Assembly (NCBI GenBank): GCA_947492995.1 | Contig: CANLOU010000001.1 | Coordinates: 629,001 to 693,000, forward strand | Direction of reading: 5' to 3' | Source: an uncultured Litoreibacter sp. | GTDB lineage: Bacteria > Pseudomonadota > Alphaproteobacteria > Rhodobacterales > Rhodobacteraceae | DNA length: 64,000 bases | Shown: positions 34,017 to 52,542 of the stretch, in pieces | Position numbering within the stretch: the stretch's first letter is position 1 | Layout of the letters: each line of letters starts with the position of its first letter | Notes under the pieces: generated by a model | Told to the model about the DNA's origin: nothing | What the model saw: the letters and a program-made list of their open reading frames with translations, nothing else | Databases searched by the model: none | Position numbers and translations under genes: made by a program

Positions 34017-34058
34017 GTGCCGGCGTGTTTTGCTGAATTCAAATCGGATAGGCAACAA

Positions 34059-34096: not shown

Positions 34097-34211
34097 AACG
34101 GGCTCACGAGGTCTTGCGACCAACGGAACCTAACTTTGTTACCGCTAACATAGCTGGGCATTCGCCTTTGGACAACCCATTGATTTAGAGCTATCAATAG
34201 ACAAATACCTG

Positions 34212-35261: not shown

Positions 35262-35354
35262 ACGCATATTTCTTTAAATTCTTACCAATATCTTCATATC
35301 TCTGACCTAGTGCTTGGCTGATCCCTTAAACTTGGCGGAAAGGCGAGGCTTGAT

Positions 35355-36131: not shown

Positions 36132-36304
36132 ACCTTCCCGGCCCGCGGGCCGGCGAAGAACCAGATGATGAAGCCGATGATTGGCAAGATCAGGACCAGA
36201 AGTATCCAAAGAACTTTCGTACCCGTTTCAGCCGACGAGTTCAGAATCGAGACAATTGCCCAGATCGCCAGTACAAAGACGATTATGCCGCCAATAGTTT
36301 GCAT
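36128..36304 (-). CDS. Small membrane protein with PLDc_N-like domain
   Basis: A 58-residue protein made of two transmembrane helices (GGIIVFVLAIWAIVSILN and VLWILLVLILPIIGFIIWFF) and a short basic tail, ending GPRAGKV. It matches the N-terminal PLDc_N module seen in cardiolipin synthases and in free-standing small proteins of unknown role. ATG 36304 follows GAAGG. It ends 4 bp into the stop of the convergent PhyR-like gene. Confidence 0.8.
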   Translation of the reverse strand: MQTIGGIIVFVLAIWAIVSILNSSAETGTKVLWILLVLILPIIGFIIWFFAGPRAGKV

Positions 36305-36470
36305 GTTGAAACCTTCGTGTTTTTTCGTTGGACCCCAGCGTATCAGCCTTCCAGCCACGCTCAAAGCCCGGTGAGCTACATACGTGCATGTGGTCTTGCG
36401 GTGAGGTCTTTCAAGTTGTGAGTTATCAAAGCAACCGATATTCAAGTCTGGAGCCTTTCGGGAGGATCAG

Positions 36471-37832: not shown

Positions 37833-38791
37833 AACTTGGGTCTCTCAAAGCAAGCAACGCTCCGGACGGGCACCTTGTCGTCGTTTCAGACGACCTTTCC
37901 CAGACCATCTCTGCTGGCGCATCGACGCTGCAGGCTTTCCTGGACGGGGCGGCGCTGGCTCCCGACGAGACAACACGCGCGCCTGCTGATCCAGGCAGTT
38001 TTGCCTCCCCCCTTCCACGCTCCTACCAGTTCCTTGATGGCTCGGCCTACGTGAACCACGTCGAACTTGTCCGAAAAGCACGCGGTGCTGAAATGCCCGA
38101 AAGCTTCTGGTCAGACCCGCTTATGTATCAAGGCGGGTCCGACAGCTTTTTGGGCCCAACAGACCCGATTTCTGGCCATCCCGATTGGGGCATTGATTTC
38201 GAGGGCGAGGTCGCGGTTGTCACCGGACCCGTGCGCATGGGAGCCAGCCTTGAAGAGGCCAAACACGCCATACGGTTGGTGATGCTGTGCAATGATGTGT
38301 CATTGCGAAACCTCATCCCAAGCGAGCTGTCCAAGGGCTTTGGCTTTGTCCAGTCCAAGCCTGCCTGTAGTTTCTCGCCGGTCGCGGTCACGCCGGATGC
38401 GCTGGATGGCTGGGACGGCTCTAGGCTGCACGGCACGTTAAACGTAAACCTGAATGGCGCGCCCTACGGGCGGGCAGATGCCGGCGTCGACATGACATTC
38501 GACTTCCCGACACTCATCGCGCACGCCGCGAAGACGCGCAGCTTGGCGGCAGGTACCATCATTGGGTCCGGCACGGTCTCCAACAAACTTGGCGGTGGTC
38601 CCGGCAAGCCTGTCAGCGAGGGCGGCGCTGGCTATTCATGCATCGCCGAACAACGCGTGGTCGAAACCATTCTCCACGGCACCCCCAAAACACCCTTCCT
38701 TCAGCACGGCGACACCGTCGACATCTGGATGGAAGACGACACCGGCCAAAACATCTTTGGCACCATTTCACAAAAGGTTCAGGCACTATGA
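37829..38791 (+). CDS. Fumarylacetoacetate hydrolase family protein
   Basis: A 320-residue hydrolase with the FAH fold. Metal ligands appear in [13 protein letters not shown] (E-x-E) and [13 protein letters not shown]. Near the C-terminus is [16 protein letters not shown], the family glycine motif. In this context it should cleave fumarylacetoacetate to fumarate and acetoacetate, the last step of homogentisate breakdown. It is coupled to hmgA upstream and to the MBL-fold gene downstream by 4-bp overlaps. Shorter than mammalian FAH, as usual for bacteria. Confidence 0.92.
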
Positions 38792-39738
38792 GCAAGGCAT
38801 TCGCGTCACAGGGTGACATGACCGAGAAGAAAATCACCTTTGATGAGGTCGGCGACGGCTTGTGGGCGTTTACGGCCGAAGGCGATCCAAACTCGGGTGT
38901 CATCATTGGCGATGAAAGTGTAATGATCGTCGAGGCGCAGGCCACCCCACGGCTTGCCAACAAAGTCATCGAAAAAGTGCGGGAGGTGACCGACAAGCCC
39001 ATCTCCCACGTGGTGCTGACCCATTACCACGCCGTGCGGGTGCTTGGGGCCTCTGCCTTTGACGCCAGCCAAATCATCATGTCTGACGCCGCCCGCGCCA
39101 TGGTGGTCGAACGGGGGCAGGAAGACTGGGATAGCGAATTCCAGCGGTTCCCACGCCTGTTTGAGGGGCATGAAAGCATCCCCGGCCTCACCTACCCGAC
39201 CACCACGTTCAGCGACAGCATGACTGTTTATCTTGGCGACCGCCGGGTCGACATCAAGCAAATTGGACGGGCGCATACGGCCGGCGACGCGGTTATTCAT
39301 GTGCCCGACCAAAACGTCATGTTCACCGGCGACATCGTCGAGGATCATTCAGCATGCTACTGTGGGGACGGCTATTTTGGCGATTGGGGGGCCACCTTGG
39401 ACCGGATCAAATCCTACGACGTGGACGCAATCGCGCCCGGCCGCGGCGGGGCGCTGGTTGGCAAGGACGCGGTCGCGCGCGCCATTGAAAGCACGCGGGA
39501 CTTCGTTGACAGCACTTACCAGCCCGCCCGCAAAGTGGCGATGAAAGGCGGGTCGCTGAAAGACGCATGGGACGCGGTGCGCGAGGCCTGCGACCCGAAA
39601 TTCAAGGACTACGCCATTTACGAGCACTGTCTGCCCTTCAATGTCAGCCGCGCCTATGACGAAGCGCGCGGGATTTGGCATCCACGCATCTGGACCGATA
39701 AACGTGATCTGGACATGTGGGCGCAACTGCAAGGCTAG
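38788..39738 (+). CDS. MBL-fold hydrolase with unusual metal motif
   Basis: A 316-residue metallo-beta-lactamase-fold protein. The first metal motif reads VLTHYHAVRVLGASAF, so HxHxDH is replaced by HxHxxR and the second-site Asp/His are missing. Later ligands remain (GRAHTAGD and FTGDIVEDHSACYCGDG). It likely binds a single metal, or a different one. It sits between the FAH-type and monooxygenase genes in the homogentisate operon and may act as a hydrolase or isomerase-like helper (for example where maleylacetoacetate isomerase is expected). That role is inference only. Confidence 0.83.
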   Translation: MSKAFASQGDMTEKKITFDEVGDGLWAFTAEGDPNSGVIIGDESVMIVEAQATPRLANKVIEKVREVTDKPISHVVLTHYHAVRVLGASAFDASQIIMSDAARAMVVERGQEDWDSEFQRFPRLFEGHESIPGLTYPTTTFSDSMTVYLGDRRVDIKQIGRAHTAGDAVIHVPDQNVMFTGDIVEDHSACYCGDGYFGDWGATLDRIKSYDVDAIAPGRGGALVGKDAVARAIESTRDFVDSTYQPARKVAMKGGSLKDAWDAVREACDPKFKDYAIYEHCLPFNVSRAYDEARGIWHPRIWTDKRDLDMWAQLQG

Positions 39739-39761
39739 TTGGCAACGAGGGAGGCCGCACG

Positions 39762-41387
39762 TTGACAGAACCCCGCTATGACATCGCGTTCAAACTGTAC
39801 CCGTACAAACAGGTAGCCGCGCAATCCACCGCCCCTCAGCGCCACCCCGTTGTGATCGTCGGTGGCGGCCCGATTGGGCTAGCCACCGCGCTTGATCTGG
39901 GGCGCAAAGGCACGCCAGTCCTTGTGCTCGATGACCACGAGGGGGCGGGTCAGGGCAGTCGGGCCATCTGCTTTGCAAAACGCACGCTCGAAATTGCGGA
40001 CCGGCTCGGCGCAGGTCAGGCCATGGTCGACAAGGGCGTGGTGTGGAATGTCGGCAAGGTCTTTCACGGCGACGACAAGGTTTTCGAATTCAACCTGCAA
40101 CCCGAGGAAGGCCACAAGTTCCCCGCCTTCATAAACCTGCAACAGCCGTATTTCGAGAAATACATCGCGGATGAAATCCGCGTGGCCCAGTCGCAAGGCG
40201 CACCGATCGAACTTCGAGGCAAAAACACCGTCACGAAAATGTGCCAAAAGGACGACCATGTCGTCCTGGACGTGGACACGCCAGACGGTCCCTATAAAAT
40301 CCTGGCGGATTGGCTGGTCGCCTGTGACGGGGCCCGGTCCCCGATCCGTAAAATGATGGGCCTCAGTTTTGACGGGCGGGTGTTCGAGGACAATTTCCTG
40401 ATCGCAGACGTCAAAATGACCGCGGCCTTCCCGACCGAGCGCTGGTTCTGGTTCGAGCCGCCCTTCAAAAACAGCGGCGCGTCGGCGTTGCTGCACAAGC
40501 AGCCCGACGACATTTGGCGCATCGACTTTCAACTGGGGTGGGACATAGACCGCGCACATGAACTGCAAGACGAAAATGTTCGCGCCCGGGTGGATGCAAT
40601 GTTGGGCGAAGACATCGACTACGAGTTGGAATGGACCTCGATCTACACGTTCCAATGCCGACGCATGAAAGACTTTCGGCATGACCGCGTGCTGTTTGCC
40701 GGTGACAGCGCGCATCAGGTCTCGCCCTTCGGGGCCCGCGGGGCCAATTCAGGTGTTCAGGACGCGGATAATCTGGCTTGGAAACTTGACCTCGTCATCA
40801 AGGGGCTGGCCCCCGACGCGCTGCTCGATACCTATTCCCGGGAACGCGCCCACGGGGCGGACGAGAACATTCTCAATTCATCTCGGGCCACAGATTTTCT
40901 GACCCCGAAAAGCGACATGAGCAAGGTGTTTCGCAACGCCGTACTCACACTTGCCAAATCCCATGAATTTGCGCGGCCATTGGTCAATTCCGGGCGGCTG
41001 TCGGTGCCATGCGTTTACGACGGCATGCCTTTGAACGGACCCGACGAATTGGCAGGCCCTGCGCGGACACGGGTTGGCGCACCTTGCGTGGATGCGCCGA
41101 TGGCGGAGGGGTTCCTGCTGGATAAATTGGGCGGCAGCTTTACGCTTCTTGCGATCAACACCCAGCCGCCTTCGCTGGAAGAGGTCGGCGGGATCGCAAT
41201 ACAAACGCTGCGCATCTCAACCAAGGAAGATGACCCGACGGGGGCGGTCAAGGACCGGTATTTGGGCTACACCACGCAGGCGATTTATCTGCTGCGTCCC
41301 GACCAACATGTTGCGGCGCGTTGGACAACCGCAAATGCCCAACAGATCGCGACAGCCTTGCGCATCGCAACCGCACAGGAGCTTTAG
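39762..41387 (+). CDS. FAD-dependent aromatic monooxygenase (MhpA/PheA type)
   Basis: A 541-residue class A flavoprotein hydroxylase. The FAD GxGxxG motif is VVIVGGGPIGLATALDLGRKG (about residues 29-49), the DG motif is LVACDGARSPIRKMMG, and the GD motif is RVLFAGDSAHQVSPFGARGA. It probably hydroxylates an aromatic acid that feeds homogentisate, for instance 3-hydroxyphenylacetate. That is inferred from the operon. TTG 39762 is the start, with GGGAGG just upstream. It is followed after 3 bp by the DUF2783 gene. Confidence 0.9.
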   Translation: MTEPRYDIAFKLYPYKQVAAQSTAPQRHPVVIVGGGPIGLATALDLGRKGTPVLVLDDHEGAGQGSRAICFAKRTLEIADRLGAGQAMVDKGVVWNVGKVFHGDDKVFEFNLQPEEGHKFPAFINLQQPYFEKYIADEIRVAQSQGAPIELRGKNTVTKMCQKDDHVVLDVDTPDGPYKILADWLVACDGARSPIRKMMGLSFDGRVFEDNFLIADVKMTAAFPTERWFWFEPPFKNSGASALLHKQPDDIWRIDFQLGWDIDRAHELQDENVRARVDAMLGEDIDYELEWTSIYTFQCRRMKDFRHDRVLFAGDSAHQVSPFGARGANSGVQDADNLAWKLDLVIKGLAPDALLDTYSRERAHGADENILNSSRATDFLTPKSDMSKVFRNAVLTLAKSHEFARPLVNSGRLSVPCVYDGMPLNGPDELAGPARTRVGAPCVDAPMAEGFLLDKLGGSFTLLAINTQPPSLEEVGGIAIQTLRISTKEDDPTGAVKDRYLGYTTQAIYLLRPDQHVAARWTTANAQQIATALRIATAQEL

Positions 41388-41390
41388 CCA

Positions 41391-41579
41391 ATGAGCCTCA
41401 ACCTTGATCCAAACATCACCGATCCGGACGGCTTCTATGACGAGCTGCTCGACGCCCACCAAGACCTCAGCAAGGCGGACAGCGATGCGCTGAACGCCCG
41501 CCTCATCTTGATTCTCGCCAACCATATCGGGGATCGCGAAACGCTCAGAGATGCGCTTCGGGTTGCAAAAGCGCCGTAG
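41391..41579 (+). CDS. DUF2783 small protein
   Basis: A 62-residue protein, mostly helical and acidic, that fits DUF2783 (DPDGFYDELLDAHQDLSKAD, then LNARLILILANHIGD). Members are usually found next to this type of FAD monooxygenase in Alphaproteobacteria, as here (3-bp gap). Function is unknown; a subunit or chaperone for the hydroxylase is possible. It is the last gene of the homogentisate operon. Confidence 0.85.
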   Translation: MSLNLDPNITDPDGFYDELLDAHQDLSKADSDALNARLILILANHIGDRETLRDALRVAKAP

Positions 41580-41779
41580 CCCTCGACATTGATGGTGCTT
41601 TAATACCGCTGATTTTCTTCCGCGATTGCCGTGGCTTACGGCCTTGGCACGGGCTTTCCTTGCCAATTTTCAATCCGCTCAACCCGTGAAACGCGCCGCT
41701 TTCAGCTGCATTGAAGGTTGATCGAAAAACCCGTCTGACGCACAGTTAACGCGTTTTTAGTATTTGATGGGAGTGTATT

Positions 41780-44539
41780 ATGACCCTCGACCTGCTTGCG
41801 GCTGCGCAGAATTTGGCGGCACCCGAACCCGAAGAAGGCCTTCCGGCAAACCGCCTGCGTTTCACTTTGGAATATGCACAGGCCCCAGACGAAACGGCCG
41901 AACGGCAAAAACTTGTCGACATACTTGGTGGCGAGAAATTCTCTCTCGACCCGCTCGACCCGCTACTTCCTGAATTTCTTGTTTTGCAATTTTCTGGCGT
42001 CGAGCGGCGCATTTCACCGCAAAGCCAGTTCGCCGCAGCAGACGAGCTTGTGGATGTGTTGGGTCTCGTTTCTGCGACGCCTGACATAGGGTCCACCTTT
42101 GTCATCGCGCCCGATGACCCTGACCGTGTCGAGAGGGCGGCGGACCTCTTTCTGGGTTTCACCTGCTGGGTCAGCGAACGAGCCTTGGCCAAAGATTGGT
42201 CCGTCAAGGCAATGAACATCCCGCCGCTTTGGGCGCGCGGGATTGATGGAAGCGGAATTACCGTCGCCCAACCCGATAGTGGCGTTGCAACTCATTCTGA
42301 ACTTGATGGCGTCCTAGACCTGTCGCGCGCGCTCAATGTGCTCAACGGGACGACAGACCCAACCGACCCGCTGTCATCTGATATGGGCAACCCCGGTCAC
42401 GGGACAGCCACAGCCAGTGTCGTGGCAAGCCGCAGCTCCGGGTCTGTGCTTGGCTCTGCTCCAGGAGCGAAAGTTGTGCCCATTCGCTGCCTAAACAGCG
42501 TTGTGCTTGGCATTGATCCAACCCCGGTCGCCAAGGCGATCCTTCACGCTGTGCGTATCAACGCTGACGTCATATCAATGTCTTTGGGCGGGGGGCTTTA
42601 TTCGCGCTCGATGGCTGCTGCGATGGAAAAGGCTGCCGAGGCCGGGATCATTATCATCGCCGCTGCCGGCAATTGTGTGCAACCGATTGTCGTCTACCCC
42701 GCACGAGACCGTAACGCCATTGCGTTGGGAGGCAGCAATCATCAGGACAAGCCGTGGAAAGGGTCAAGCCGAGGCCGCGCCGTTGTCGTGTCCGCCCCAG
42801 CCGAAAACGTCCTTGTTGCGCGACGAACGCCAGATGATGGCGGGCAGGAAGTCGTCAAACCGTCGCAAGGAACCTCATTCGCAGTCGCGTTGACAGCTGG
42901 TGTCGCCGCCATGTGGCTGCAACACAAGACACGTGCGCATGTCGCGCAGCATGCCGCACGGCTTGGCACCACGACCAACACCTTGTTCAAAACGGTGCTC
43001 AAACTGACGGCGCGCCAACCCAGCGGTTGGCCGTCTTCGCTTGGTGCGGGCATCGTGGATGCGGAAAAGGTGATTGATTTCGATCTTGCGTCAATCCAGT
43101 CCATCGGCACCCCCGAAGCCGCCCAGCCTGTCACTGACGATGCGTTGGTGGCCGCTCTCGATCGGTCCTTCGAAGGTATCGAAACGGGGTTTGACGACTG
43201 GCCCCGCATCGGGGCTGAAACTGTTTTCTTGCTGAATGACGCTTGGATACGGGCCGAGCGCGGTGCCGGACTGCCGGTGGAATCGCCATCAAGACCTGCC
43301 GCCAGCAAAGGGTTGCAAACGCGTATGCCCTCCCATGTCGCGGCTGCTATCGCGCCCCACGATGACACGCCATCATTCGACCCGCCGCTTATCAACCGCG
43401 CCGCAAAGCAGCCAAACTACGCCAAGCTGCTGGCGGCCGGTCAACGCGGCACGCCCGAGTCGAGCGCGGCGATGTCGACCGAGCAAGCCAATGCACGGCT
43501 GAAAGGCGCGCACGCAGATCAAGTGCTCAACGCCGCGGATCAGGCCTTCTCGGGCATATTGGCTTTGGGGCAGGGTGAACGTGACGCGCAGGCCAGCGTG
43601 ATGCAGCAGGCCAAGGAGGTAATCCAGATGGTCGCTGACGGGCGCACCGAAGACCTGGACACCAACGGACGGGCGACCCTTGAAGCCCTTGTGCGGGTGA
43701 CCGATAGACCCGCCTTTCGCCTGACAGGTGGCACCATTGATCTTGAAGATCCGCTGTTCGGCGAATGGGGCGGCTTCTTGGCGCTGCAAATTGACCTTCC
43801 AAGCTGGGCCGACTCTGTCGGTCGTATCAATCTTGACGGCACCCATGTTGGCACCGGCTTCCTGATGGGCGGCGGGCAGGTCATGACCAATCGCCATGTG
43901 TTGGAGGCCTGCGCGGACGAGATTTTCGGTCCCGTCGGCTCCGTTTGGCGCTTTGACAGGGGGGAGGTGACAATCGACTTCTCTGACCTTGCGGATGGCA
44001 GCAAGGAATATGCGCTCACCGGCGTTTCAATGGCAGGCCCTGACCCCATTCAGGGGATGGAGAACCTGAACCACCTTGATTGCGCGATGCTGCGACTGGA
44101 TGCGGGGGCTGCAGGACTGCCGCGCGAGCTTCCCTTCGCACGCGGTCTGAACACCGACGCCGACATGATGGTGATCGGCTACCCAGCGCGGCCCGGCACG
44201 TCGGCTTTCATTGATCCGGCAACCGGCAAACCAAGTCTGGAGATCGCGCAAAGGCTGCGGCAAATATTTGGCACGGACTTTGGGCGGAAATATGTGGCCC
44301 CGGGCAGAGTCCTTGAGGGGCCGGGCCAGCTTGCAGGCGATCCACATGCATGGGCGCTCAGCCATGATTGCAGCACGCTGGGCGGCAACTCTGGCTCGGT
44401 GGTGATCCAGCTTGATGGCAACCCTGCCGTAGCCGGTCTGCATTTCAGCGGCGCTCCGTTGACGGCCAACAAGGCGCATGCGCTTGGCAAGGTGGATGAA
44501 AGCAGGGCGGGCCCGCTGCCAAGCGCGAATTGGATATAG
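41780..44539 (+). CDS. Double protease: subtilisin-like (S8) fused to trypsin-like (S1) domain
   Basis: A 919-residue protein with two complete serine protease active sites. An N-terminal region of about 150 residues precedes the S8 domain: Asp 166 (VAQPDSGVATHSEL), His 207 (GNPGHGTATASVV), oxyanion Asn (IIAAAGN) and Ser 366 (QGTSFAVALTAG). After a linker of about 250 residues, a trypsin-like domain follows: His 706 (VMTNRHVLEAC), Asp 767 (LNHLDCAML) and Ser 871 (TLGGNSGSVVI). No signal peptide is seen, so it probably acts in the cytoplasm. ATG 41780 starts the cassette; the next gene begins 6 bp after its stop. Probable effector/initiator protease of a conflict system. Confidence 0.88.
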   Translation: MTLDLLAAAQNLAAPEPEEGLPANRLRFTLEYAQAPDETAERQKLVDILGGEKFSLDPLDPLLPEFLVLQFSGVERRISPQSQFAAADELVDVLGLVSATPDIGSTFVIAPDDPDRVERAADLFLGFTCWVSERALAKDWSVKAMNIPPLWARGIDGSGITVAQPDSGVATHSELDGVLDLSRALNVLNGTTDPTDPLSSDMGNPGHGTATASVVASRSSGSVLGSAPGAKVVPIRCLNSVVLGIDPTPVAKAILHAVRINADVISMSLGGGLYSRSMAAAMEKAAEAGIIIIAAAGNCVQPIVVYPARDRNAIALGGSNHQDKPWKGSSRGRAVVVSAPAENVLVARRTPDDGGQEVVKPSQGTSFAVALTAGVAAMWLQHKTRAHVAQHAARLGTTTNTLFKTVLKLTARQPSGWPSSLGAGIVDAEKVIDFDLASIQSIGTPEAAQPVTDDALVAALDRSFEGIETGFDDWPRIGAETVFLLNDAWIRAERGAGLPVESPSRPAASKGLQTRMPSHVAAAIAPHDDTPSFDPPLINRAAKQPNYAKLLAAGQRGTPESSAAMSTEQANARLKGAHADQVLNAADQAFSGILALGQGERDAQASVMQQAKEVIQMVADGRTEDLDTNGRATLEALVRVTDRPAFRLTGGTIDLEDPLFGEWGGFLALQIDLPSWADSVGRINLDGTHVGTGFLMGGGQVMTNRHVLEACADEIFGPVGSVWRFDRGEVTIDFSDLADGSKEYALTGVSMAGPDPIQGMENLNHLDCAMLRLDAGAAGLPRELPFARGLNTDADMMVIGYPARPGTSAFIDPATGKPSLEIAQRLRQIFGTDFGRKYVAPGRVLEGPGQLAGDPHAWALSHDCSTLGGNSGSVVIQLDGNPAVAGLHFSGAPLTANKAHALGKVDESRAGPLPSANWI

Positions 44540-44545
44540 TCTTCT

Positions 44546-46516
44546 GTGACCGCGATTAAGCCTCTTGAAATCAAACGGCTTGCTCAGAAGCTCAAGGTGT
44601 CGCGGGCGGTATTTGCCGCCGCGTATGATGAGGTCGCGGATGCATATGGCGGCCTGACCTTCAAGGTTGTGGCCGAACTGCAAAATCTGGAAGAGCATCT
44701 TCCCCCCGGCCAGGACCGGGACAGGCGCGATTATTTTGCGGCGATGCGCAAGGCCAACGAAGACGACTGGCTGGTCGAATTCGTGTTCGAGAAATTCGCC
44801 GATCTGGCGGCGCCCGATCAAGGCGCCAGCGATGCCAGCTCAATCAGGCCGGTGTTGCAAAGCATTGCCAACAGGCAGCAGCGATTCCAAGAGGCCGATA
44901 AAATCACCATGGGCACGCTGACGGCCATGCGCCGCTGCTGCGTGATTAAGGCGGTCACCAAGACGCAGGACAGCACGACCCGCGAGGCAGTGGGGTCGGG
45001 CTTCCTGATCGGGCCGCATTTGGTGCTGACGAACCACCATGTAATTTCAAGGTTCTTGGGCGAGGACGGGGCACCGCTGAACGGCAACACGCAGCCTTAT
45101 GTCGAATTTGACTATCACGCGGGCCGCAGCAGGATCATGAAGCCGCAGCCCTATGATCTGTTGCAAAGCGAAGGCCGGTCATGGCTGCTGGCGCACAGTC
45201 CAAAGGTGCCTGAAACCGTCGACGAGACGGCCGAGACCTTGGCCGCCAATCTCGACTATGCGGTCCTGATCCTTGATGGCAGGCCGGGGGACATGCGCGG
45301 CTTCTACAGCCTCTCGGATATCCTCAATGATCTGCCCATCAAGCTGCCGCCCGTTGGCAACCCGCTGCAGCTTTGGCAATTCCCCAACAGCCAGCCCATG
45401 AAGGTTGTGTCCAACCTGCGGTCGCCGCCCCCGCCTGCGCTTAGTTTCCCAGACGATGAAACGGACCACCCCCGCGTCTATTACGTGGTTAATTCTGATC
45501 GGGGGTCGTCCGGTGGGCTGGTGCTGGACGACGCGTCAAAGGCGATGGCGCTGCACGATGCCGGGTTCAACGCGGATGCCCCGCAGGACGCGCGCAAGAA
45601 CCGTGGCGTGCCGCTGCACATGATTGCGCGGGACGCGATCAGCATCATCACTCAGGAAATTTCGAACCAGCCCAAAAAGGCGGGCTGGCATCCCAAGCGC
45701 AAGCTGCCCATCATTGGCCGGCAGACCCTTCAAAACCATATCTTCGATGCGGCTTACCGGAACGGGCGTATCATCGCGGTCATGACCATCCCGGACGATA
45801 ATGCGCAACGCATCCCCAAGCTGGGGCGCAGCTACACGCGGGAGATCATCGAAAGCTGCCTGCCTGCGGACAAGCATCATATCGTCTCTGTCGGCGCCTC
45901 GTTGATTGATCCCGATCCGTTCCTGACCGCCCATCGCATCGTCTCAACCATTAACCCCGCTCTTGCGACCGAACTGCCCCTTCCAACAGGGGAAACGACA
46001 CTGGATGCCGACGCGACGGGCATATTGGTGCAAGAGACGGTCGCCGCGCTGCAGGCCGCGGCGCCTGACAAAATCGTTTGGCTGATGATCGACGATATTG
46101 ATTCCGATCCCATCGGGACGCAGTGGGGGTCATCCAGCTTTCTGGTGGCCCTGTACCGCCGGATTGCTCGCTCCGATACTCTGCGCGTCGTGCTCGCGGG
46201 GCTGCCCCGCCGTCTGGAGGGGCTGCAAGACATTCGGGCGCAAACCGGTGTCATTCTCGAAGACCTCCTGACCGAAGAGCCCACCGATGCAGAACGCACT
46301 GATTGGATCGCCGCGCATTTGACGCATGACATGCAGCCCCATGAGTTGGCGCCGCGCCTGTCCAGCCTTGTCGCTGGCGTCGCCTTTGAGCAGGCGGATG
46401 GCTCAAATGGCGGCGCGGCTCCGTCCTCGGCCCGTCTCAGCAAAACCGAGGCGCTGAACAGATTGCTCAGCAGCCACGGGCGCACGGCATTCCTGACAGG
46501 TGATCGCGATGACTAA
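44546..46516 (+). CDS. EAD-like domain, trypsin-like protease and NTPase-like C-terminus
   Basis: A 656-residue protein. Residues 1-90 (LAQKLKVSRAVFAAAYDEVA ... NEDDWLVEFVFEKFADL) form a small helical domain that resembles an effector-associated domain (EAD1-like), an adaptor used in NTP-dependent conflict systems. A trypsin-like domain follows: His 165 (LTNHHVISRF), Asp 237 (NLDYAVLILD) and Ser 322 (RGSSGGLVLDD). The C-terminal 250 residues contain VWLMIDDIDSDP and LRVVLAGLPRRL, like the Walker B and sensor strands of a P-loop ATPase, but no clear Walker A. GTG 44546 starts 6 bp after the double-protease gene; the stop overlaps the STAND gene by 8 bp. Confidence 0.82.
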   Translation: MTAIKPLEIKRLAQKLKVSRAVFAAAYDEVADAYGGLTFKVVAELQNLEEHLPPGQDRDRRDYFAAMRKANEDDWLVEFVFEKFADLAAPDQGASDASSIRPVLQSIANRQQRFQEADKITMGTLTAMRRCCVIKAVTKTQDSTTREAVGSGFLIGPHLVLTNHHVISRFLGEDGAPLNGNTQPYVEFDYHAGRSRIMKPQPYDLLQSEGRSWLLAHSPKVPETVDETAETLAANLDYAVLILDGRPGDMRGFYSLSDILNDLPIKLPPVGNPLQLWQFPNSQPMKVVSNLRSPPPPALSFPDDETDHPRVYYVVNSDRGSSGGLVLDDASKAMALHDAGFNADAPQDARKNRGVPLHMIARDAISIITQEISNQPKKAGWHPKRKLPIIGRQTLQNHIFDAAYRNGRIIAVMTIPDDNAQRIPKLGRSYTREIIESCLPADKHHIVSVGASLIDPDPFLTAHRIVSTINPALATELPLPTGETTLDADATGILVQETVAALQAAAPDKIVWLMIDDIDSDPIGTQWGSSSFLVALYRRIARSDTLRVVLAGLPRRLEGLQDIRAQTGVILEDLLTEEPTDAERTDWIAAHLTHDMQPHELAPRLSSLVAGVAFEQADGSNGGAAPSSARLSKTEALNRLLSSHGRTAFLTGDRDD

Positions 46517-49500
46517 CGCCGCGCAGATCGCAATTGAACACGCCGCCCTGAACGGACATTTCGCGCCAAGGCGCTTCCTATATGCGGCGGGCGATGACAC
46601 TGCTCAGGTGCTCAGCGCGCTGGGGCCGTTGTGCCACGAAATCGTGGAAGACGACAAAATTCTCTGGCGGATGCGCAACTCGGACCGGCTGCGCGTGCTC
46701 AAGCAATTGTTTAGGGACAAAGCCCGCCTCAACCAGCGGCTCCGCAAACGCGGACCCAAGAAATCCGATACCTTTGCCCAAGTTCTTGCTGCCTGCCTGA
46801 AGGGCAAGACTGCACCAAAAATTGCCGACTTCATCGTACCGGACGATCCCCAAAGTTTGCATAAGCTGCGTGAGGCGCTTAGCGCTACAGTTGTCGCGCA
46901 ATCTGTTGTCAGCGCGAAACGCGGCAAGTCTCTGGTGGCCTTTGAACGAAAGCTTCGATTTACCTCCTCAAAATACGCAGAGCGGGCAAGACAGCAGGCA
47001 GTGCTACCTTCAAAACTCTGCGGGCGGATCGCCGAGCGCAAAGCGATTTTCGCCTTCCTGAATAACCGGCCCGTCAGTCACCCCATAACGGTCCTCAATC
47101 CAGCTGCACAAACACCCCCGCGATCCCTTCTGGTTCTCGGCTCACCGGGTATGGGGAAATCGGCGTTTCTGGCAGACCTGTCGGCGCGTCTCCCTGATCG
47201 CAGCCCCAGGCCGTGGGTGCTCAAATTCGACTTCGATCAACTCACCCTGCTGCACGGTGGAAGCATTGCCTGGACGGAGGAAGCCATGCGCCAGCTCAGC
47301 CTCCAACTCAGGGATAAGCAAGACAAACTCGATGACTTGCGTGGACGCTTTGCGCAGCGCCGCGCAGAAGAAGCCACGGGAGAGACGCTTTCCGAAGTCG
47401 AGTTCCTGCTCGATGACACCGCAACAATCCTCGCGGATGTGCCGCACAAACCAATGGTCGTCTTGCTCGACACGATTGAGGAGGTCGTGTCTCGCGACAT
47501 GCGCGAGGATTTCGAACGCGCGCCGCGCGGGACCGTGTTCCGGTCCCTGATTGACTGGGTCAAGCGGCTGTCGACATTGAACGGCGTCCAGCCGGTCCAT
47601 GTAATCTATTCCGGGCGCATCCCGCCACCCATCGCGCAAGACCTGCTGCCTGAATGGTTCGACGCGGAACTGGAATTACCCCAGCTTGAAGACGATGCGG
47701 CGGCGGAACTGCTTGGCATCTTTGATGCCGACATGTCCCACGACATACGGACGGCCTTGGTCCAAAGCGTCGGTGGCCACCCATTGCATCTGATTCTTGT
47801 GCAAAAGCATCTTCGGAATCTCACGCCAAGCGAGCGCGAAGACGTCATCGAGGAGCTCCAACAAGAGGGTCTGCCAGGCATGGAGTCGTCCACGGTCATG
47901 CAGACGCTCTACAGCCGGTTTCTTGATCGGTTGCGCATCAAGGATCGCAGCCACGGCCTGACGGAAGAGATGATAAAGCAACTGGCCCATCCCGGGCTGC
48001 TGTTGCGCAAGATAACCGTGGAAACGCTGACCGATGTTATCGCGCCCGCGGTGGGTGTGGACTTCTCCGGCGCTGCCGCTGCGCAGCAGGCATTCCGCAT
48101 CCTTCGAGATCAGGTCTGGTTGGTCAACTCCGCCCCCGGCAGCGACTTCATCACACACCGCCCCGATGTGCGCCGCGTGATGCTGCCTATGATGTTGGGC
48201 TCCACAAAGCCCGAAATCGCCTGCGTCCTCAAAGCAGCGATCAAAGACCGTGACGCCGCCGACGATCCCGTCAATGCGGGCTATTTCCGCGCGTTGCTGG
48301 GCGAAACCAGCTGGCTGAAGAAGAACCCGGAGCTCGCCCAAAGCGTCATCAACAAGGCTGGCCTTGAAGAACTGGAAGTGCTGACCCCCGAAGTCCGCGG
48401 ATTGCTGAAATTCTACGCCTCAGAAGTTCGCCCGCTCAGCGAGGAAGAGCTCAGCACGTTGGACGACAAACAAAGGGACCTCGCGCAATTCGCCTCAAGC
48501 GCCGAAATGGTCCGCAAGACCGGTACGCGGTCTTCTGCCTCCGCCATGGAAAGGCAGAGTGGCTCCGACCGCGAGCACTACGCCAATCGCGACATGATTG
48601 ACCGCCTCAAGGAGGACATCCACAGCACGGGGCAGTCAGGCGACGCTTACGACATACTCAATCACACGTTCCTGCAAACTGAGATCAACACCGCCTTCAT
48701 CGAAGGCGACTTTGAAACCGTTCTCGAGTTGGGCTGGCATGCCATCGCCCAAATGCGCTCCCTCCCCGATCTCTCACAGCCGCTTGCTATACGAATGTCC
48801 GAATTTGGGGAATTCTGGCTCTGGCGTCTGACGCTCGCCAGCATGGTTATGCCGGTCAAGGAAAAAGGCGCTTTGACGTCCCTCAAGCGAAAGATCAGTG
48901 ATTGGGACTATTCAATCTCAAGAACTCAGACGAACAATATCTTTTCAGCATCCCTGTTCGACTTTGATATGCTGCTGCGCTCGTTGGATCCGAGGGCTCG
49001 ACCGCAATACATGCTCAACGGGGCAGAACGGCAAGGCAAGGTCAGCAATCTTGGCTTCAAAGGTCAGCGGCTCTTGGCCCAGTCAATTCTGCTCCGTTCC
49101 GTCGCAAAGGACCGATCCGTCACGTTGGAGGTCAGCGCCAACACCCAAAGCTTTCTGGCCCCAGAATACAGGCAGTTGGCAAGAGGCGATGATGCCAGCC
49201 GATCTGTCATGGTCGACTATAGATCTGCGCGTTCAAAATCCGCTGAATTGGTCGAGGACATTTTCAAACACATTCGCAGAGGCAGGCAGAGCGGGCCGGA
49301 TGAACTTACCCGCATATATCGCGGCTTTGTCCGGTCCCGTCGCATCGACAGATCTAATGCTGTCCCACTCACATATCTGCCAATCGGCGATGTGCCCTTC
49401 CCGCGAACTATTCTGAACCGGGTCGTCCGCGGACAAACACCCGAACTTCACGACACGGTCGCGGGCTTGCTCGTCAACGAAATCGTCACTGATAGTGTGG

Positions 49501-49769
49501 AAGATCTATTTTTCTTCGCCCCTTTGTCGCTGCCGACGCCTTGGCCGCAAGACGCGCTGCGCCGCATTCAACTCTTGTCCAATCCCAAGGCTAACAGCCA
49601 GGAACGTCATGACGCCGCAATCGAACTCACCCGTTTCGCGGACCTGTGCGGGCTGCTGACGATGCTGGCTGGCAACATGGCCGAACAGTCGTCCTCTCCC
49701 CGCGTCCAGAACGTGGCGCGACTTTTGCGCCACCTCGACCATCATTGGACATGGCCCACCAAAACCTGA
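46509..49769 (+). CDS. STAND-type P-loop ATPase (protease cassette)
   Basis: A 1086-residue protein. The N-terminal 170 residues are helical and without a named domain. The NTPase core has Walker A LVLGSPGMGKSAFLADLSAR (GSPGMGKS at residues 211-218) and Walker B PMVVLLDTIEEVVSRD (around 322), then VHVIYSGRIPP as sensor 1 and a winged-helix-like region with VGGHPLHLILVQ. The C-terminal 450 residues are mostly helical and could sense a trigger or form the oligomer. ATG 46509 is chosen (AGGTG upstream); it overlaps the EAD-trypsin gene by 8 bp. The unit looks like a switch ATPase controlling the two proteases. Confidence 0.83.
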   Translation: MTNAAQIAIEHAALNGHFAPRRFLYAAGDDTAQVLSALGPLCHEIVEDDKILWRMRNSDRLRVLKQLFRDKARLNQRLRKRGPKKSDTFAQVLAACLKGKTAPKIADFIVPDDPQSLHKLREALSATVVAQSVVSAKRGKSLVAFERKLRFTSSKYAERARQQAVLPSKLCGRIAERKAIFAFLNNRPVSHPITVLNPAAQTPPRSLLVLGSPGMGKSAFLADLSARLPDRSPRPWVLKFDFDQLTLLHGGSIAWTEEAMRQLSLQLRDKQDKLDDLRGRFAQRRAEEATGETLSEVEFLLDDTATILADVPHKPMVVLLDTIEEVVSRDMREDFERAPRGTVFRSLIDWVKRLSTLNGVQPVHVIYSGRIPPPIAQDLLPEWFDAELELPQLEDDAAAELLGIFDADMSHDIRTALVQSVGGHPLHLILVQKHLRNLTPSEREDVIEELQQEGLPGMESSTVMQTLYSRFLDRLRIKDRSHGLTEEMIKQLAHPGLLLRKITVETLTDVIAPAVGVDFSGAAAAQQAFRILRDQVWLVNSAPGSDFITHRPDVRRVMLPMMLGSTKPEIACVLKAAIKDRDAADDPVNAGYFRALLGETSWLKKNPELAQSVINKAGLEELEVLTPEVRGLLKFYASEVRPLSEEELSTLDDKQRDLAQFASSAEMVRKTGTRSSASAMERQSGSDREHYANRDMIDRLKEDIHSTGQSGDAYDILNHTFLQTEINTAFIEGDFETVLELGWHAIAQMRSLPDLSQPLAIRMSEFGEFWLWRLTLASMVMPVKEKGALTSLKRKISDWDYSISRTQTNNIFSASLFDFDMLLRSLDPRARPQYMLNGAERQGKVSNLGFKGQRLLAQSILLRSVAKDRSVTLEVSANTQSFLAPEYRQLARGDDASRSVMVDYRSARSKSAELVEDIFKHIRRGRQSGPDELTRIYRGFVRSRRIDRSNAVPLTYLPIGDVPFPRTILNRVVRGQTPELHDTVAGLLVNEIVTDSVEDLFFFAPLSLPTPWPQDALRRIQLLSNPKANSQERHDAAIELTRFADLCGLLTMLAGNMAEQSSSPRVQNVARLLRHLDHHWTWPTKT

Positions 49770-49789
49770 TCGGTCAGAAAGGAAAGCCT

Positions 49790-49891
49790 ATGGTCGATTT
49801 GAAGTTGTTCTGGAGATACGTCATTCAAACTGCGGAGATCGAAGACTACCGAATCCATGACAACACAACGATGTGCGCATCTTGTCGATGA
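49790..49891 (+). CDS. Possible small ORF after the STAND gene
   Basis: A 33-codon frame (MVDLKLFWRYVIQTAEIEDY...) with a GAAAGGA site just upstream, starting 20 bp after the STAND gene. It could be a small accessory protein of the cassette or the start of a truncated gene, since the next 240 bp contain no intact gene. I see no family match. Confidence 0.3.
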   Translation: MVDLKLFWRYVIQTAEIEDYRIHDNTTMCASCR

Positions 49892-50133
49892 TCCTCTAAG
49901 AGAGGAGCAAATGCGTTTGGAAGTCAATCGCGGTCCAAAGCTGCCGTTGGCATCGACTAAGACCGCAGCGATAAGGGTATCCCAAAGCGGACATTTGTGG
50001 ATGGCGCAGCATTGCGAGAGATCAGGTGTTCGCAGTGCGGGACAAAGCAGGCTTTTGCTGTTTATGCACCGATCGCCGGTTTCAGATTTCGCACCCGAAC
50101 TCTAACGGAGACCGCGCGCGCAGAAGTAGCGAT

Positions 50134-50655
50134 TTAAATCTTCCCGCTTAGGAGCGACAGATTACATTGCGTCGCATAACCCATCGCACGTTTTATTCCC
50201 GGTAAAAGAGCCGCCCCGTTCATCGCATAGCTAATCTCAATCAAACCTGCGTTTCCGAAGGCCCTTTGAATTTCGGCGCGCGCCTCTGAATCGTCCTCGC
50301 CGTTTGAAACGACAGCATCCGAGAGGCGTGCGACGGCGGAGATTTCTTTGGGAAGTTCGGCGTAGTCTTTCAACAGCAAAGCCCTGATCGTTTCCGGTTT
50401 AATGCCAGATGCTTTTGCCAGGTTCACTTCTGCCTCAACACATGTCCCACAATCTGCGGCGACTGCGCCACGTATCCTCGCAACGTGATACGCCAGAGCA
50501 GGGACGTTCTTGTTCGGATCGAGAAAACCGAAAATCTTTCCATAGCGAGACATCAGCCCGAAGTCTGTTTTCGCTATCTCATGTGCATAATCGAGCTCGA
50601 CGCCAATACGTTTTTCAGCCCTGTTTACCAGATATCGTGCGATGGATTTTAGCAT
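50134..50655 (-). CDS. AhpD/carboxymuconolactone decarboxylase-like protein
   Basis: A 173-residue helical protein with the AhpD-like motif VAADCGTCVEAEVNLA (around residues 67-82), a CxxC pair as in peroxidase-like alkylhydroperoxidase D proteins. Upstream is RYGKIFGFLDPN. A likely thiol-based redox role is inferred from the CxxC. ATG 50655 follows GGGAGG. It is isolated, on the opposite strand to its neighbours, and is not part of the protease cassette. Confidence 0.8.
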   Translation of the reverse strand: MLKSIARYLVNRAEKRIGVELDYAHEIAKTDFGLMSRYGKIFGFLDPNKNVPALAYHVARIRGAVAADCGTCVEAEVNLAKASGIKPETIRALLLKDYAELPKEISAVARLSDAVVSNGEDDSEARAEIQRAFGNAGLIEISYAMNGAALLPGIKRAMGYATQCNLSLLSGKI

Positions 50656-50984
50656 CCTGATCCTCCCTAACCACTTGCAAAGCGCATTGCATGCTTGCTT
50701 GGCTATTTGCCAAAAGGAAGGGCTATCTGAACATATCCGGAATGCGCTCAACACATACATTCAACCATTTTTCAGAACAGGAAAACTGGCACTGGTAAGT
50801 GATGCAGCATCATGCGCTTTGGGCTCACTCCTGCCGTTAGCCGCGTCAACACATCCTGACAAACGACCTTAATCTTACCAACATCAGCGGCCCAAACCGG
50901 ATGAGGTGGGTGGCTCCTGCTCCAACCGGCGTCGCAATGCGCCATAATGCAAATGTCAAAATCTGCCTACGAGAGGAGCTGCCC
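50656..50984. other. Intergenic region, no gene seen
   Basis: About 330 bp between the AhpD-like gene and the first IS remnant. Open frames are short and lack start signals. The right part is GC-rich and may be debris of inserted DNA; I see no repeats or RNA genes. Confidence 0.4.
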
Positions 50985-51043
50985 CATGCAAGTTTCCATA
51001 ATCGGCGTTGATCTGGCCAAGTATGTTTTCAAATCCACGGGAT
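50985..51043 (+). pseudogene. IS110-type transposase N-terminal fragment
   Basis: The first 19 codons, MQVSIIGVDLAKYVFKSTG, match the start of an IS110-family DEDD transposase (GVDLAK is the first catalytic Asp region). A stop follows at once, and the next DNA belongs to an IS3-type element, so this is a remnant cut by another insertion. Confidence 0.75.
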
Positions 51044-51715
51044 AGCGGAGAACGAAGAACCGCGTCGCGAAGCAAGGGACCTCAAAGAGGTGGTCGCGGA
51101 ACAGACGCTCGAACTGCGTTTTCTCAAAAAAGCATGTACGACGGTGAGGACGGCCAAGACTGAGAGACCTTGCATCTGAGAAGCTGGAGATCATCCGGCA
51201 GGTCGAGGGATCGCATCTGTCAACGCGTCAAACGCTGGCCAAGCTGGGCATTCCACGCACCACGTTCTATCGCTGGTACGACCGATATCTTCAGTGCGGC
51301 GAGGCTGGTCTGAAGGATCAATTTCCCAAACCTAAACAAGTTTGGAACCGGGTGCCTGATGAAGTGAAGCGCAAGGTTGTCGACTTCGCCTTGCAGGAAA
51401 CGGAACTGTCACTGCGGGAGCTGGCCGTGACATTCATGGATCAGGATCGCTATTTTGTATCAGAATCCACCGTGTATCGGGTGCTGAAAGCGCATGACCT
51501 GATTACCAGCCCGGCGTGCATCGTGCTCAAGGCGGCGAACGAGTTCAAAGACAAAACGACTGGGATCAACCAGTTGTGGCAGATGGACTTCACCTACATC
51601 AAAGTCTTCGGCTGGGGCTGGTTCTATCTCAGTACGGCCCTCGACGATTACAGCCGCTACATCGTCTCCTGGAAGATCTGCCCCAACATGCGGGGTGAAG
51701 ACGTGACGGACACCA
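51044..51715 (+). pseudogene. Truncated IS3-family transposase (OrfA tail and OrfB N-terminal part)
   Basis: The first part encodes the end of an OrfA (DLKEVVAEQTLELRFLKK). From about 51160 the OrfB frame reads LRDLASEKLEIIRQVEGSHL, then IPRTTFYRWYDRYLQ, and the start of the rve integrase core (LWQMDFTYIKVFGWGWFYLS, then ALDDYSRYIVSWK, with two catalytic Asp). The frame loses homology after MRGEDVTDT, before the conserved DDE glutamate, so it cannot transpose. No terminal repeats are evident. Confidence 0.8.
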
Positions 51716-51901
51716 GAGGAAACGAATGCTCTCATTCTCGACTGACTCGCAAAACAACAGATCATCTCGATGATGTTCTTCCTCGGCTTTGGCGGTGACG
51801 TGACCACGTCACTGATCTCCCGCCGAGATCACGCTCGCCGCACTTTAACGTATCAAGAGCATGCTGGTTGCGGAGGTTCTATTCTGAAACTTACAGTTGC
51901 C

Positions 51902-52366
51902 TTAGTACCCCTTTGGGGGTGGCACGACCGCGTCGCCTACGGATAATCGTCCGGTCTTGATGATCTTTGCGATCAATCCGCCGCAATCTTCGAATGTCTT
52001 CTGAAAACTGGCGTCAATACCGGCCCGCTTGCTTGGAAGATTACATGGATCGCAATAGCTGACACCTTCAAAAACAGCATTGCCGACGCTAAATTCCCGA
52101 CCGATGAGCCACATCAATTCGACGTCCTTAACAAAGATGTTTCGACGGCTATCAGCAAAGCTAAATGCTGTGTCTTTGAAGAAGCGAGCATTCATTAACG
52201 TGACCTGGCGGAGACCCATCCTGTCGCGATTGAAGCGGCCTTGACCAGTGCAGTAACGATCTCCTTCAAGTCCTTGACCAGCGAGTCCGACAACGCTTTG
52301 CACTTCCGTCATTTTCGAGAACATCGTTTCGCCGATACAAATACCAACGATGGATCCATCTGACAT
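51902..52366 (-). CDS. MOSC domain protein
   Basis: A 154-residue protein of the MOSC family (molybdenum cofactor sulfurase C-terminal-like). The family features GLEGDRYCTGQGRF and VSYCDPCNLPSKRAG are seen, the latter with a conserved Cys, plus GGLIAKIIKTGRLSVGDAV at the C-terminus. MOSC proteins deliver sulfur or handle pyridoxal/molybdenum-linked chemistry; a precise substrate is not visible. It lies alone between IS remnants, ATG 52366, on the minus strand. Confidence 0.85.
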   Translation of the reverse strand: MSDGSIVGICIGETMFSKMTEVQSVVGLAGQGLEGDRYCTGQGRFNRDRMGLRQVTLMNARFFKDTAFSFADSRRNIFVKDVELMWLIGREFSVGNAVFEGVSYCDPCNLPSKRAGIDASFQKTFEDCGGLIAKIIKTGRLSVGDAVVPPPKGY

Positions 52367-52542
52367 TTTGACTTCTTTCTAAGAGTTTACACATGGCTTT
52401 GGAATTTCGGCAAGGAGAGGCATTCAGGGCCACCCAAGACATCTAATTTGTCTCAGAGTTCAGGATTGGTCTAGGTTCCGTCAAAAAAAATTCTGTAGAT
52501 CGAATTGGACCTGTTGCGGATTTGTGCGGCTCTCTTGACTTG

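What the first reader, a model, noticed from the sequence alone, without database searches (positions are those of the whole stretch)
41780..49769. Three-gene protease/STAND cassette, possibly a new conflict or cell-suicide system
Seen: three genes spaced by 6 bp and overlapping by 8 bp encode a double serine protease (S8 plus S1), an EAD-like/trypsin-like/NTPase-like protein and a STAND-type ATPase. Known: EADs, trypsin-like effectors and STAND ATPases combine in NTP-dependent conflict systems, where an ATPase senses a threat and releases an effector. Inferred: the ATPase could oligomerise on a trigger and start a protease cascade (two trypsins and one subtilisin), like a zymogen chain. I do not recall a named defence system with this exact set of three.
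Basis: partly seen in the sequence, partly recalled or inferred. Interest (0 to 1): 0.88.

Follow-up and report, generated by a model that had tools for sequence, protein, structure and literature searches.

The report
Immune-switch operon with protease chain
Three neighbouring bacterial genes, related to the Caulobacter cell-lysis genes lypA, lypB and lypC, encode an immune-type (NLR-like) ATPase and three protease domains; they likely form a chain in which the triggered ATPase lets one protease cut and free another that would kill the cell, perhaps to stop viruses.

Summary
The three genes are real and intact. They recur in the same order in 11 of 28 outside loci read, and on a conjugative Rhizobium plasmid. 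The set has known relatives: genes 2 and 3 match LypA and LypB (hhalign E 4e-26 and 2e-41), and the trypsin half of gene 1 matches LypC (31%, E 2e-18). LypABC is a published CARD-NLR-like lysis system of Caulobacter. Here the LypC nuclease is missing and a subtilisin with a zymogen-like prodomain takes its place.

New here: between subtilisin and trypsin, the only columns at least 95% conserved in 70 non-redundant relatives are three glutamates, one inside and one directly beside a low-confidence loop. Glu followed by a small residue also marks the prodomain linker (63 of 70; shuffle mean 18.3) and the LypC nuclease linker (30 of 33; shuffle mean 10.7). By sequence, the nearest solved relatives of both trypsin domains are glutamyl endopeptidases. 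I infer a glutamate-coded protease chain that frees the subtilisin once the ATPase fires. Trigger, cleavage and outcome are untested. The CARD fold of gene 2 was not confirmed; no EAD was found.

The parts
41780..44539 (+). Gene 1 (P1, 919 aa): I9-like prodomain + S8 subtilisin + helical linker + trypsin; occupies the LypC role
   Evidence: ORF; Pfam; model md617fe4f3bdc mean pLDDT 85.7; trypsin part 31% identical to LypC over 296 alignment columns, E 2e-18
41852..42082 (+). P1 residues 25-101, predicted beta-alpha-beta-beta-alpha-beta prodomain like the subtilisin I9 propeptide
   Evidence: secondary structure; Foldseek to unprocessed pro-subtilisin E 3whi_B, 418 columns, TMt 0.80, TMq 0.33 against 0.25-0.28 for mature subtilisins; no Pfam I9 match
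42131..42133 (+). Glu118 of P1, candidate cut site between prodomain and subtilisin (low-confidence loop 108-123)
   Evidence: E followed by S/A/G/T in this linker in 63 of 70 relatives, shuffle mean 18.3, max 30 in 2000 shuffles; in the window itself the dipeptide is E-R
42248..43051 (+). P1 residues 157-424, Peptidase_S8 with D166/H207/S366
43280..43282 (+). Glu501 of P1, candidate cut site after the subtilisin (E-S)
   Evidence: E in 70 of 70 non-redundant relatives, next residue S 41, A 15, T 10, other 4; pLDDT below 50 at 495-501
43457..43459 (+). Glu560 of P1, candidate cut site before the trypsin unit (E-S)
   Evidence: E in 62 of the 65 relatives that reach this column; directly after the loop 556-559 with pLDDT below 50
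43850..44422 (+). P1 residues 691-881, trypsin-like domain with H706/D767/S871; GLH motif with H888 follows
   Evidence: Pfam; the eight best of 14 PDB sequence matches are glutamyl endopeptidases, E 5e-4 to 2e-3
44546..46516 (+). Gene 2 (P2, 656 aa): helical domain + trypsin + degenerate NTPase; LypA-like
   Evidence: hhalign to the LypA family Prob 99.7, E 4e-26 over 498 columns
44561..44809 (+). P2 residues 6-88, five predicted helices in the position of the LypA CARD
   Evidence: model m4f1d408a0503, block pLDDT 78-97; domain-only profile comparison negative (Prob 0.2)
44993..45544 (+). P2 trypsin-like domain, H165/D237/S322; ALH motif with H337 directly follows the Pfam range
   Evidence: Pfam; triad and H337 in 39 of 39; best PDB profile match glutamyl endopeptidase 1p3c, E 3.5e-11
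45707..46321 (+). P2 C-terminal NTPase-like domain with degenerate Walker A (GRS); limits set by eye from the alignment
   Evidence: alignment; counts; AAA_22 and AAA_16 match 8 and 6 of 39 family members
46509..49769 (+). Gene 3 (P3, 1086 aa): NLR-like STAND ATPase with long C-terminal part; LypB-like
   Evidence: Pfam AAA_16; hhalign to the LypB family Prob 100, E 1.6e-41 over 569 columns
47139..47162 (+). P3 Walker A GSPGMGKS (K217); Walker B D321 lies at 47469-47471
   Evidence: K217 and D321 in 17 of 17 diverse family members, gene 3 included

Best explanation
This operon encodes relatives of the Caulobacter lysis proteins LypA and LypB, plus a subtilisin-trypsin fusion in the place of LypC, and it likely works as a protease chain in which the triggered ATPase gathers the LypA-like protease, which would cut the fusion after conserved glutamates and so free the subtilisin to kill or lyse the cell. 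Step by step. P3 would rest autoinhibited and assemble with ATP when it senses an unknown trigger (inferred from its Walker A/B motifs and from LypB, whose K230A and D335A mutants fail in Caulobacter, PMC13236601). P3 would recruit P2 through the helical N-terminal domain of P2 (inferred; [quoted passage not shown] Crowded P2 trypsin, together with the P1 trypsin, would cut P1 at Glu118, Glu501 and Glu560 (predicted). Losing the I9-like prodomain would activate the subtilisin, the candidate death effector (predicted). Shown here: homology, intact active sites, recurring gene order, the conserved glutamates, and a zymogen-like model. That related operons carry a nuclease, a subtilisin or both beside the same trypsin family suggests an exchangeable cargo.
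For: Gene order P1-P2-P3 recurs in L002-L007, L042-L044, L047 and L050, 11 of 28 outside loci, and in L080 on a conjugative Rhizobium plasmid. P2 matches the LypA family E 4e-26, P3 the LypB family E 2e-41, and the P1 trypsin matches LypC E 2e-18. Locus L082 was recognised as lypABC-like because, after fitting a start codon for LypA and for LypC, residues S262/T356/S360/F361, K230/D335 and S296/H471/N505 fall at the published numbers. Catalytic residues in non-redundant sets: S8 and trypsin triads in 65 of 65 fused forms, P2 triad in 39 of 39, P3 K217 and D321 in 17 of 17. Conserved glutamates in linkers; the fourth low-confidence loop of that region, 528-541, has no such Glu. By sequence, glutamyl endopeptidases come first for both trypsin domains; the GxH motif is kept (H337 39 of 39, H888 64 of 65). 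The P1 model resembles unprocessed pro-subtilisin E and pro-Tk-subtilisin. No long membrane segment is evident: maximum KD19 1.8 in P1, 1.0 in P2, 1.3 in P3. Cargo exchange: S8 plus separate trypsin-NucA in L045 and L049, trypsin-NucA-S8 in L046.
Against: No cleavage, toxicity or defence was measured. Glutamate preference is inferred from sequence neighbours and a pocket histidine whose role is recalled; in the structural list for P2 the V8/Esp rows are tied (Z within about 1) with elastase-like and other proteases, and Foldseek mixes them with DegS. The linker tests were framed after seeing the alignments, and shuffling controls only composition. In the window the first site reads E-R. Glu480, also invariant, sits in a predicted helix, so an invariant Glu need not be a cut site. 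The CARD-like domain was not confirmed. In Caulobacter the nuclease catalytic residues of LypC were dispensable for lysis, so the fused cargo need not be the killer. Five of five stand-alone S8 relatives carry Thr at the nucleophile, so S8 activity is not universal. Nine of 15 loci lack the ATPase partner.
Confidence: 0.5

Rival explanations
1. Same LypABC-like switch, but the trypsin half of P1 is the active output: it cleaves a lytic protein encoded elsewhere, and the subtilisin is accessory.
For: In Caulobacter the LypC peptidase residue S296 is required while point mutants of its fused nuclease still lyse (PMC13236601, section 9). Stand-alone S8 relatives have Thr at the nucleophile in 5 of 5.
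Against: In the fused form the S8 triad is kept in 65 of 65 non-redundant relatives, and S8 accompanies P3 in 13 of 15 positive genomes of the order, which argues that it matters.
Confidence: 0.25
2. The operon serves lysis for release of gene transfer agents in this host, as lypABC does in Caulobacter, rather than phage defence.
For: The closest studied relative does this (PMC13236601). The host genome holds a GTA_TIM gene, 480 bits, on another contig.
Against: P3 relatives occur in only 15 of 390 genomes of the order, own included, and in none of the 5 congeners in that sample. The trio also sits on a conjugative plasmid with an integrase nearby, which fits a roaming defence gene better than a fixed GTA partner. 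Rhodobacter capsulatus releases its GTA by holin-endolysin (stated in PMC13236601).
Confidence: 0.15
3. The conserved glutamates are structural (helix caps or salt bridges), the trypsins have another specificity, and activation is by oligomerisation alone without cutting P1.
For: Glu480 is invariant but lies in a predicted helix. Low pLDDT does not prove disorder. In the structural list for the P2 trypsin, glutamyl endopeptidases are tied with other proteases.
Against: Glu501 lies in, and Glu560 directly after, a low-confidence loop amid variable residues, and both are mostly followed by small residues. A similar Glu recurs in the nuclease linker of LypC-type proteins, 32 of 33.
Confidence: 0.3

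Closest known systems
LypABC of Caulobacter crescentus (CARD-NLR-like; Banks et al. 2026, PMC13236601; abstract, sections 7, 8, 9, 13, part 1 of section 68 and search passages read)
   Same: NLR-like ATPase, LypA-type protein (helical domain, trypsin, degenerate NTPase) and a LypC-type trypsin in one operon; catalytic residues intact
   Different: LypC carries a C-terminal NucA nuclease and no subtilisin; here the nuclease is absent and an S8 zymogen-like unit is fused N-terminal to the trypsin; gene order is C-A-B instead of A-B-C
CARD-NLR gasdermin systems of Lysobacter and Azospirillum (Wein et al. 2025; not held, known here only as cited by PMC13236601)
   Same: trypsin-like protease with CARD plus NLR-like ATPase (as described by PMC13236601)
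   Different: gasdermin or other effectors there; Pfam found no gasdermin domain in the three proteins here
System 3 of Kaur et al. 2020 (PMC7159879; section 32 and search passages read): NucA + trypsin, sometimes S8, STAND, EAD1
   Same: S8 with trypsin, and STAND NTPases in some operons, mostly alphaproteobacterial; a proteolytic cascade was proposed there
   Different: NucA, called core there, is absent from this trio; no EAD1 in the trio
AVAST type 1 / nuclease-protease pairs (PMC12799240, search passages read)
   Same: a trypsin activates another enzyme by cutting gating loops, in AVAST under a STAND ATPase
   Different: cargo there is an MBL-type pro-nuclease and the trypsin is fused to the system enzyme; here the candidate cargo is a subtilisin fused to its trypsin
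HET-Q1/HET-Q2 of fungi (PMC12881547, search passages read)
   Same: subtilisin-like protease in a cell-death pair
   Different: acts on a gasdermin-like partner in fungi; no such partner found in this trio

Membership tests
CARD-NLR / LypABC kind | NLR-like STAND ATPase with Walker A and B in the operon | tested here: met
   K217 and D321 in 17 of 17; hhalign to the LypB family E 2e-41
CARD-NLR / LypABC kind | Partner protein with trypsin-like peptidase followed by an NTPase-like domain | tested here: met
   Pfam; hhalign to the LypA family E 4e-26 over 498 columns
CARD-NLR / LypABC kind | CARD fold at the N-terminus of the protease | tested here: inconclusive
   five confident helices; PDB profile search gave 3 hits at E 0.6-1.1, chance level; VIA list filled by the trypsin; domain-only hhalign Prob 0.2, E 0.31
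[quoted passage not shown]
   shown for Caulobacter in PMC13236601 (section 9); not assayed here
CARD-NLR / LypABC kind | Causes lysis, cell death or phage protection | not testable with these tools
   needs wet work
LypABC orthologue in the strict sense | LypC-type trypsin | tested here: met
   31% over 296 columns, E 2e-18
LypABC orthologue in the strict sense | C-terminal NucA endonuclease on LypC | tested here: not met
   no PF01223 in P1, while it is found in L045, L046, L049, L052 and L054; the paper notes that C. endophyticus LypC lacks it too
Kaur System 3 | NucA-type endonuclease as core | tested here: not met
   absent from the trio
Kaur System 3 | Trypsin with S8, plus STAND NTPase | tested here: met
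EAD-coupled conflict system | EAD at the N-terminus of the trypsin protein | tested here: not met
   at Pfam level only: no EAD family at E up to 1 in P2 or among the 39 family members; EAD1 is found in the protein L054:12952
AVAST type 1 | MBL-type pro-nuclease encoded immediately upstream of the trypsin | tested here: not met
   the MBL-fold gene upstream (38788-39735, PF00753) lies in a homogentisate-type catabolic operon, with an FAD monooxygenase gene between it and the trio
Glutamyl endopeptidase (V8-like S1) | Cleavage after Glu | not testable with these tools
   nearest solved relatives by sequence are glutamyl endopeptidases; structurally tied with other proteases; the GxH pocket motif is shared, its meaning recalled

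The most novel reading that the evidence does not exclude
Bacterial CARD-NLR systems run on a glutamate release code: an NLR-activated glutamyl-specific protease cuts conserved Glu-small sites that separate each cargo (subtilisin zymogen here, NucA nuclease in LypC) from its partners, so this operon is an NLR-controlled three-protease zymogen cascade, built in one bacterium much as caspase or clotting chains are in animals.
Probability: 0.4. Interest if true: 0.8.

Novelty: new variant of a known kind. Interest (0 to 1): 0.6.

Why it matters
[quoted passage not shown] A conserved, alignable glutamate in the cargo linkers of both the subtilisin and the nuclease variants gives point mutations that test activation directly. 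If right, it would be a bacterial protease cascade under NLR control with interchangeable cargo, a close parallel to inflammasome and clotting chains. I recall, without a call, that DefenseFinder lists a subtilase subtype of CARD_NLR; if so, the gene set itself is catalogued and only the release code would be new.

Tried and rejected
EAD reading of P2: no Pfam EAD match. AVAST type 1 reading because an MBL gene lies upstream: rejected, it belongs to a catabolic operon. CARD check: the Foldseek and VIA lists shown were filled by the trypsin domain; a profile of the N-terminal domain gave three chance-level PDB hits; domain-only comparison with LypA-type N-termini was negative. RNA families at 33000-52500: only a tRNA. 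Phage records: no match to P1.

A fixed defence island: one search listed 150 flanking ORFs of 18 loci, window included. I scanned 74 of them with PADLOC at E 1e-8: 17 families, each in one member. Two further scans of 20 of these ORFs traced mad3/mad8-like (also ATPase-Toprim, AriA) to L005, PycC-like to L047, weak viperin-like to L053 and C3a206 to L043. SoFic fits the annotated Fic protein of L080. The TIR effector, PycTIR, PDC-S04 and PDC-S24 matches were not traced. Flanking ORFs are alike only within L002/L003, L042/L043/L044 and L047/L050, in two genes of L045/L051, and in one pair L005/L049; a conserved fourth partner of the fused form was not found.

Empty-site reading: the upstream catabolic operon is matched in 15 of 21 genomes of the genus, own included. 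The first 1.0 kb downstream of the trio is matched in one other congener by a 130-base stretch; from about 50.8 kb on, short matches occur at several places in congeners, like a repeated IS-type element. I did not search the trio itself in all 21. GC content of the trio (0.57-0.61) is not unusual for the window, so transfer is suggested by distribution only.

Paper searches for a subtilase CARD-NLR and for glutamyl endopeptidases with NLR or gasdermin: the listings and abstract beginnings show no such description. I did not read the listed papers beyond those named in Closest known systems; the library lacks most subscription papers and Wein et al. 2025.
Full report
What is there. Pfam gives S8 plus trypsin for gene 1, a borderline trypsin for gene 2 and a borderline AAA for gene 3. 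The expected catalytic residues are present. No long hydrophobic segment stands out (maximum KD19 1.8, 1.0 and 1.3), so I take the proteins as cytoplasmic (inference).

Does the set recur? A profile of gene 2 brought 15 named loci. A profile of gene 3 brought 15 positive genomes out of 390 of the order and 4 of 385 of the class (two of them marginal at E 8e-4); both counts include the own genome. I read 28 outside loci with profiles of all three proteins: the 15 and 13 regions fetched. The order gene 1, gene 2, gene 3 is found in L002-L007 and in L042, L043, L044, L047 and L050, 11 of 28 (in L005 gene 3 runs into the contig end). Nine of the 28 (L008-L016) matched only the protease domain and carry no gene 3 relative in the fetched stretch. 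Of the 15 positive genomes of the order, 8 have the fused subtilisin-trypsin form (own genome included; G312 and G354 are read as L002 and L003 because their contig lengths agree), 4 have a stand-alone S8 with a later trypsin protein (L045, L049, L051, L053), 1 has a trypsin-NucA-S8 fusion (L046), and 2 have no S8 match in the fetched region (L048, L052). NucA was confirmed by Pfam in L045, L046, L049 and L052; L051 and L053 were not scanned. In plasmid records, 17 hold a gene 3 relative, none covering 80% of it; 11 of the 17 are Rhizobium, ten of those with the same match, and 13 are typed conjugative. One Rhizobium phaseoli plasmid shows the full trio beside a dCTP deaminase gene, with a site-specific integrase nearby, and one Polaromonas plasmid shows protease, ATPase and nuclease genes.

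What it is related to. The LypABC paper (PMC13236601; abstract, sections 7, 8, 9, 13, part 1 of the Extended Data legends and search passages read) describes a tripartite CARD-NLR-like system needed for GTA-mediated lysis in Caulobacter. To compare directly I looked for the genes in the family of a genome with a high score for the RNA family CC2171, which rings in the control genome Caulobacter vibrioides but is not specific to it (13 of 385 genomes over the cut-off). There, gene 3 relatives occur in 33 of 199 genomes, 9 of them at E below 1e-50; I fetched those nine regions. Locus L082 has, after choosing two start codons, the nine published residues at the published numbers. Against it, P1 shows 31% identity over 296 columns of the LypC trypsin, P3 27% over 582 columns of LypB, and P2 only a 19-residue blastp match to LypA at E 6e-4. 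Profile against profile, P2 and LypA match over nearly the full length (E 4e-26) and P3 and LypB over 569 columns (E 2e-41). So the filing under the LypABC kind is solid for the whole proteins. It is weaker for the CARD itself, where the isolated domains do not match.

What is different. LypC has a trypsin followed by a NucA nuclease. Here the nuclease is absent and an S8 protease stands before the trypsin. The AlphaFold2 model of gene 1 (mean pLDDT 85.7) has a beta-alpha-beta-beta-alpha-beta unit at residues 25-101 ahead of the S8 fold. The proenzyme matches, unprocessed pro-subtilisin E (3whi) and pro-Tk-subtilisin (2zwo, 2e1p), align over 418-463 columns with query TM scores of 0.31-0.33, against 0.25-0.28 for mature subtilisins. 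I read this as a zymogen. The second look with VIA lists only the mature S8 core, so docking of the prodomain rests on Foldseek alone.

The glutamates. I aligned 86 gene 1 relatives (73 database proteins, with P0077, P0104 and P0133 left out by hand, and 13 locus ORFs, five of them stand-alone S8) and kept 70 below 80% identity. Between residues 436 and 620 only three columns reach 95% identity, all Glu: 480 and 501 in 70 of 70, 560 in 62 of 65. Glu480 lies in a predicted helix; Glu501 lies in, and Glu560 directly after, low-confidence loops, and both are mostly followed by Ser, Ala or Thr. The low-confidence loop 528-541 has no such column. In the prodomain linker a Glu followed by a small residue occurs in 63 of 70 against a shuffle mean of 18.3 and a maximum of 30 in 2000. 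In 33 non-redundant trypsin-NucA-type proteins (from 50 of suitable length) the linker before the nuclease has Glu at one column in 32, and Glu-small in 30 of 33 against a shuffle mean of 10.7 and a maximum of 21. By sequence both trypsin domains find glutamyl endopeptidases first among solved structures (E 3.5e-11 for P2; E 5e-4 for P1), and share with them a GxH motif after the catalytic serine; that this His binds the substrate Glu is recalled, not from a call. By structure the P2 trypsin does not single them out: V8/Esp rows are tied with elastase-like proteases. The windows for the linker tests were set after seeing the alignments, and the shuffles keep only composition.

Mechanism and role. 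The most likely reading is a chain: trigger, ATPase assembly, recruitment of gene 2, cutting of gene 1 after Glu, release of the subtilisin. Each step after homology is inferred. Against the subtilisin as killer stand the Caulobacter result that catalytic residues of the nuclease cargo were dispensable while the LypC peptidase was not (deleting the nuclease domain made LypC unstable), and the finding that all five stand-alone S8 relatives carry Thr in place of the nucleophile Ser. Phage defence and GTA lysis are both open: the host has a GTA gene, while the sparse, partly plasmid-borne distribution fits defence.

Novelty. The kind is known; S8 with trypsin and NucA was noted in System 3 in 2020 (PMC7159879, section 32), and I recall a subtilase subtype in DefenseFinder without having seen it here. 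What I did not see in the listings is the glutamate pattern or any mechanism for the subtilisin form.

Noticed in passing
L045:5074-6687, L049:5295-6929, L051:12719-14368, L053:6251-7897, L083:6276-7952: Stand-alone S8 relatives carry GTT in place of GTS at the catalytic serine (5 of 5), while the 65 non-redundant fused forms keep Ser; the unfused subtilisin may be a pseudo-protease or a Thr enzyme.
   Followed up: partly
window 38788-39735: A metallo-beta-lactamase-fold gene lies upstream of the trio but belongs to a homogentisate dioxygenase / FAA hydrolase / FAD monooxygenase operon; it mimics an AVAST type 1 layout.
   Followed up: yes
window 51352-51798: Short ORF with a partial integrase core (rve, profile positions 5-54 of 102) about 1.6 kb after the trio; the stretch from about 50.8 kb matches several places in congeners.
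   Followed up: partly
L054:12952-14241: An EAD1-trypsin protein is encoded near another NLR-like ATPase that also has trypsin-NucA and plain trypsin genes.
   Followed up: no
L005:342-1961: A mad3/mad8-like ORF (PADLOC) lies a few kb from a trio in a Rhodobacteraceae MAG.
   Followed up: no
L045:2809-5033 and L051:14316-16448: Two split-form loci share the two ORFs just upstream of the stand-alone S8 (58% and 36% identity), possible further partners of that form.
   Followed up: no
G000:C2:491328-492215 (L090): The host genome carries a GTA_TIM gene (480 bits), which points to a gene transfer agent cluster.
   Followed up: partly
P0144, P0151, P0156, P0162, P0165: The same trypsin family is also fused to a PLD-like domain (PF13091), a further cargo type.
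   Followed up: no
window 58001-60000: AT skew of 0.258 is far above the rest of the window, over minus-strand transporter-like ORFs.
   Followed up: no
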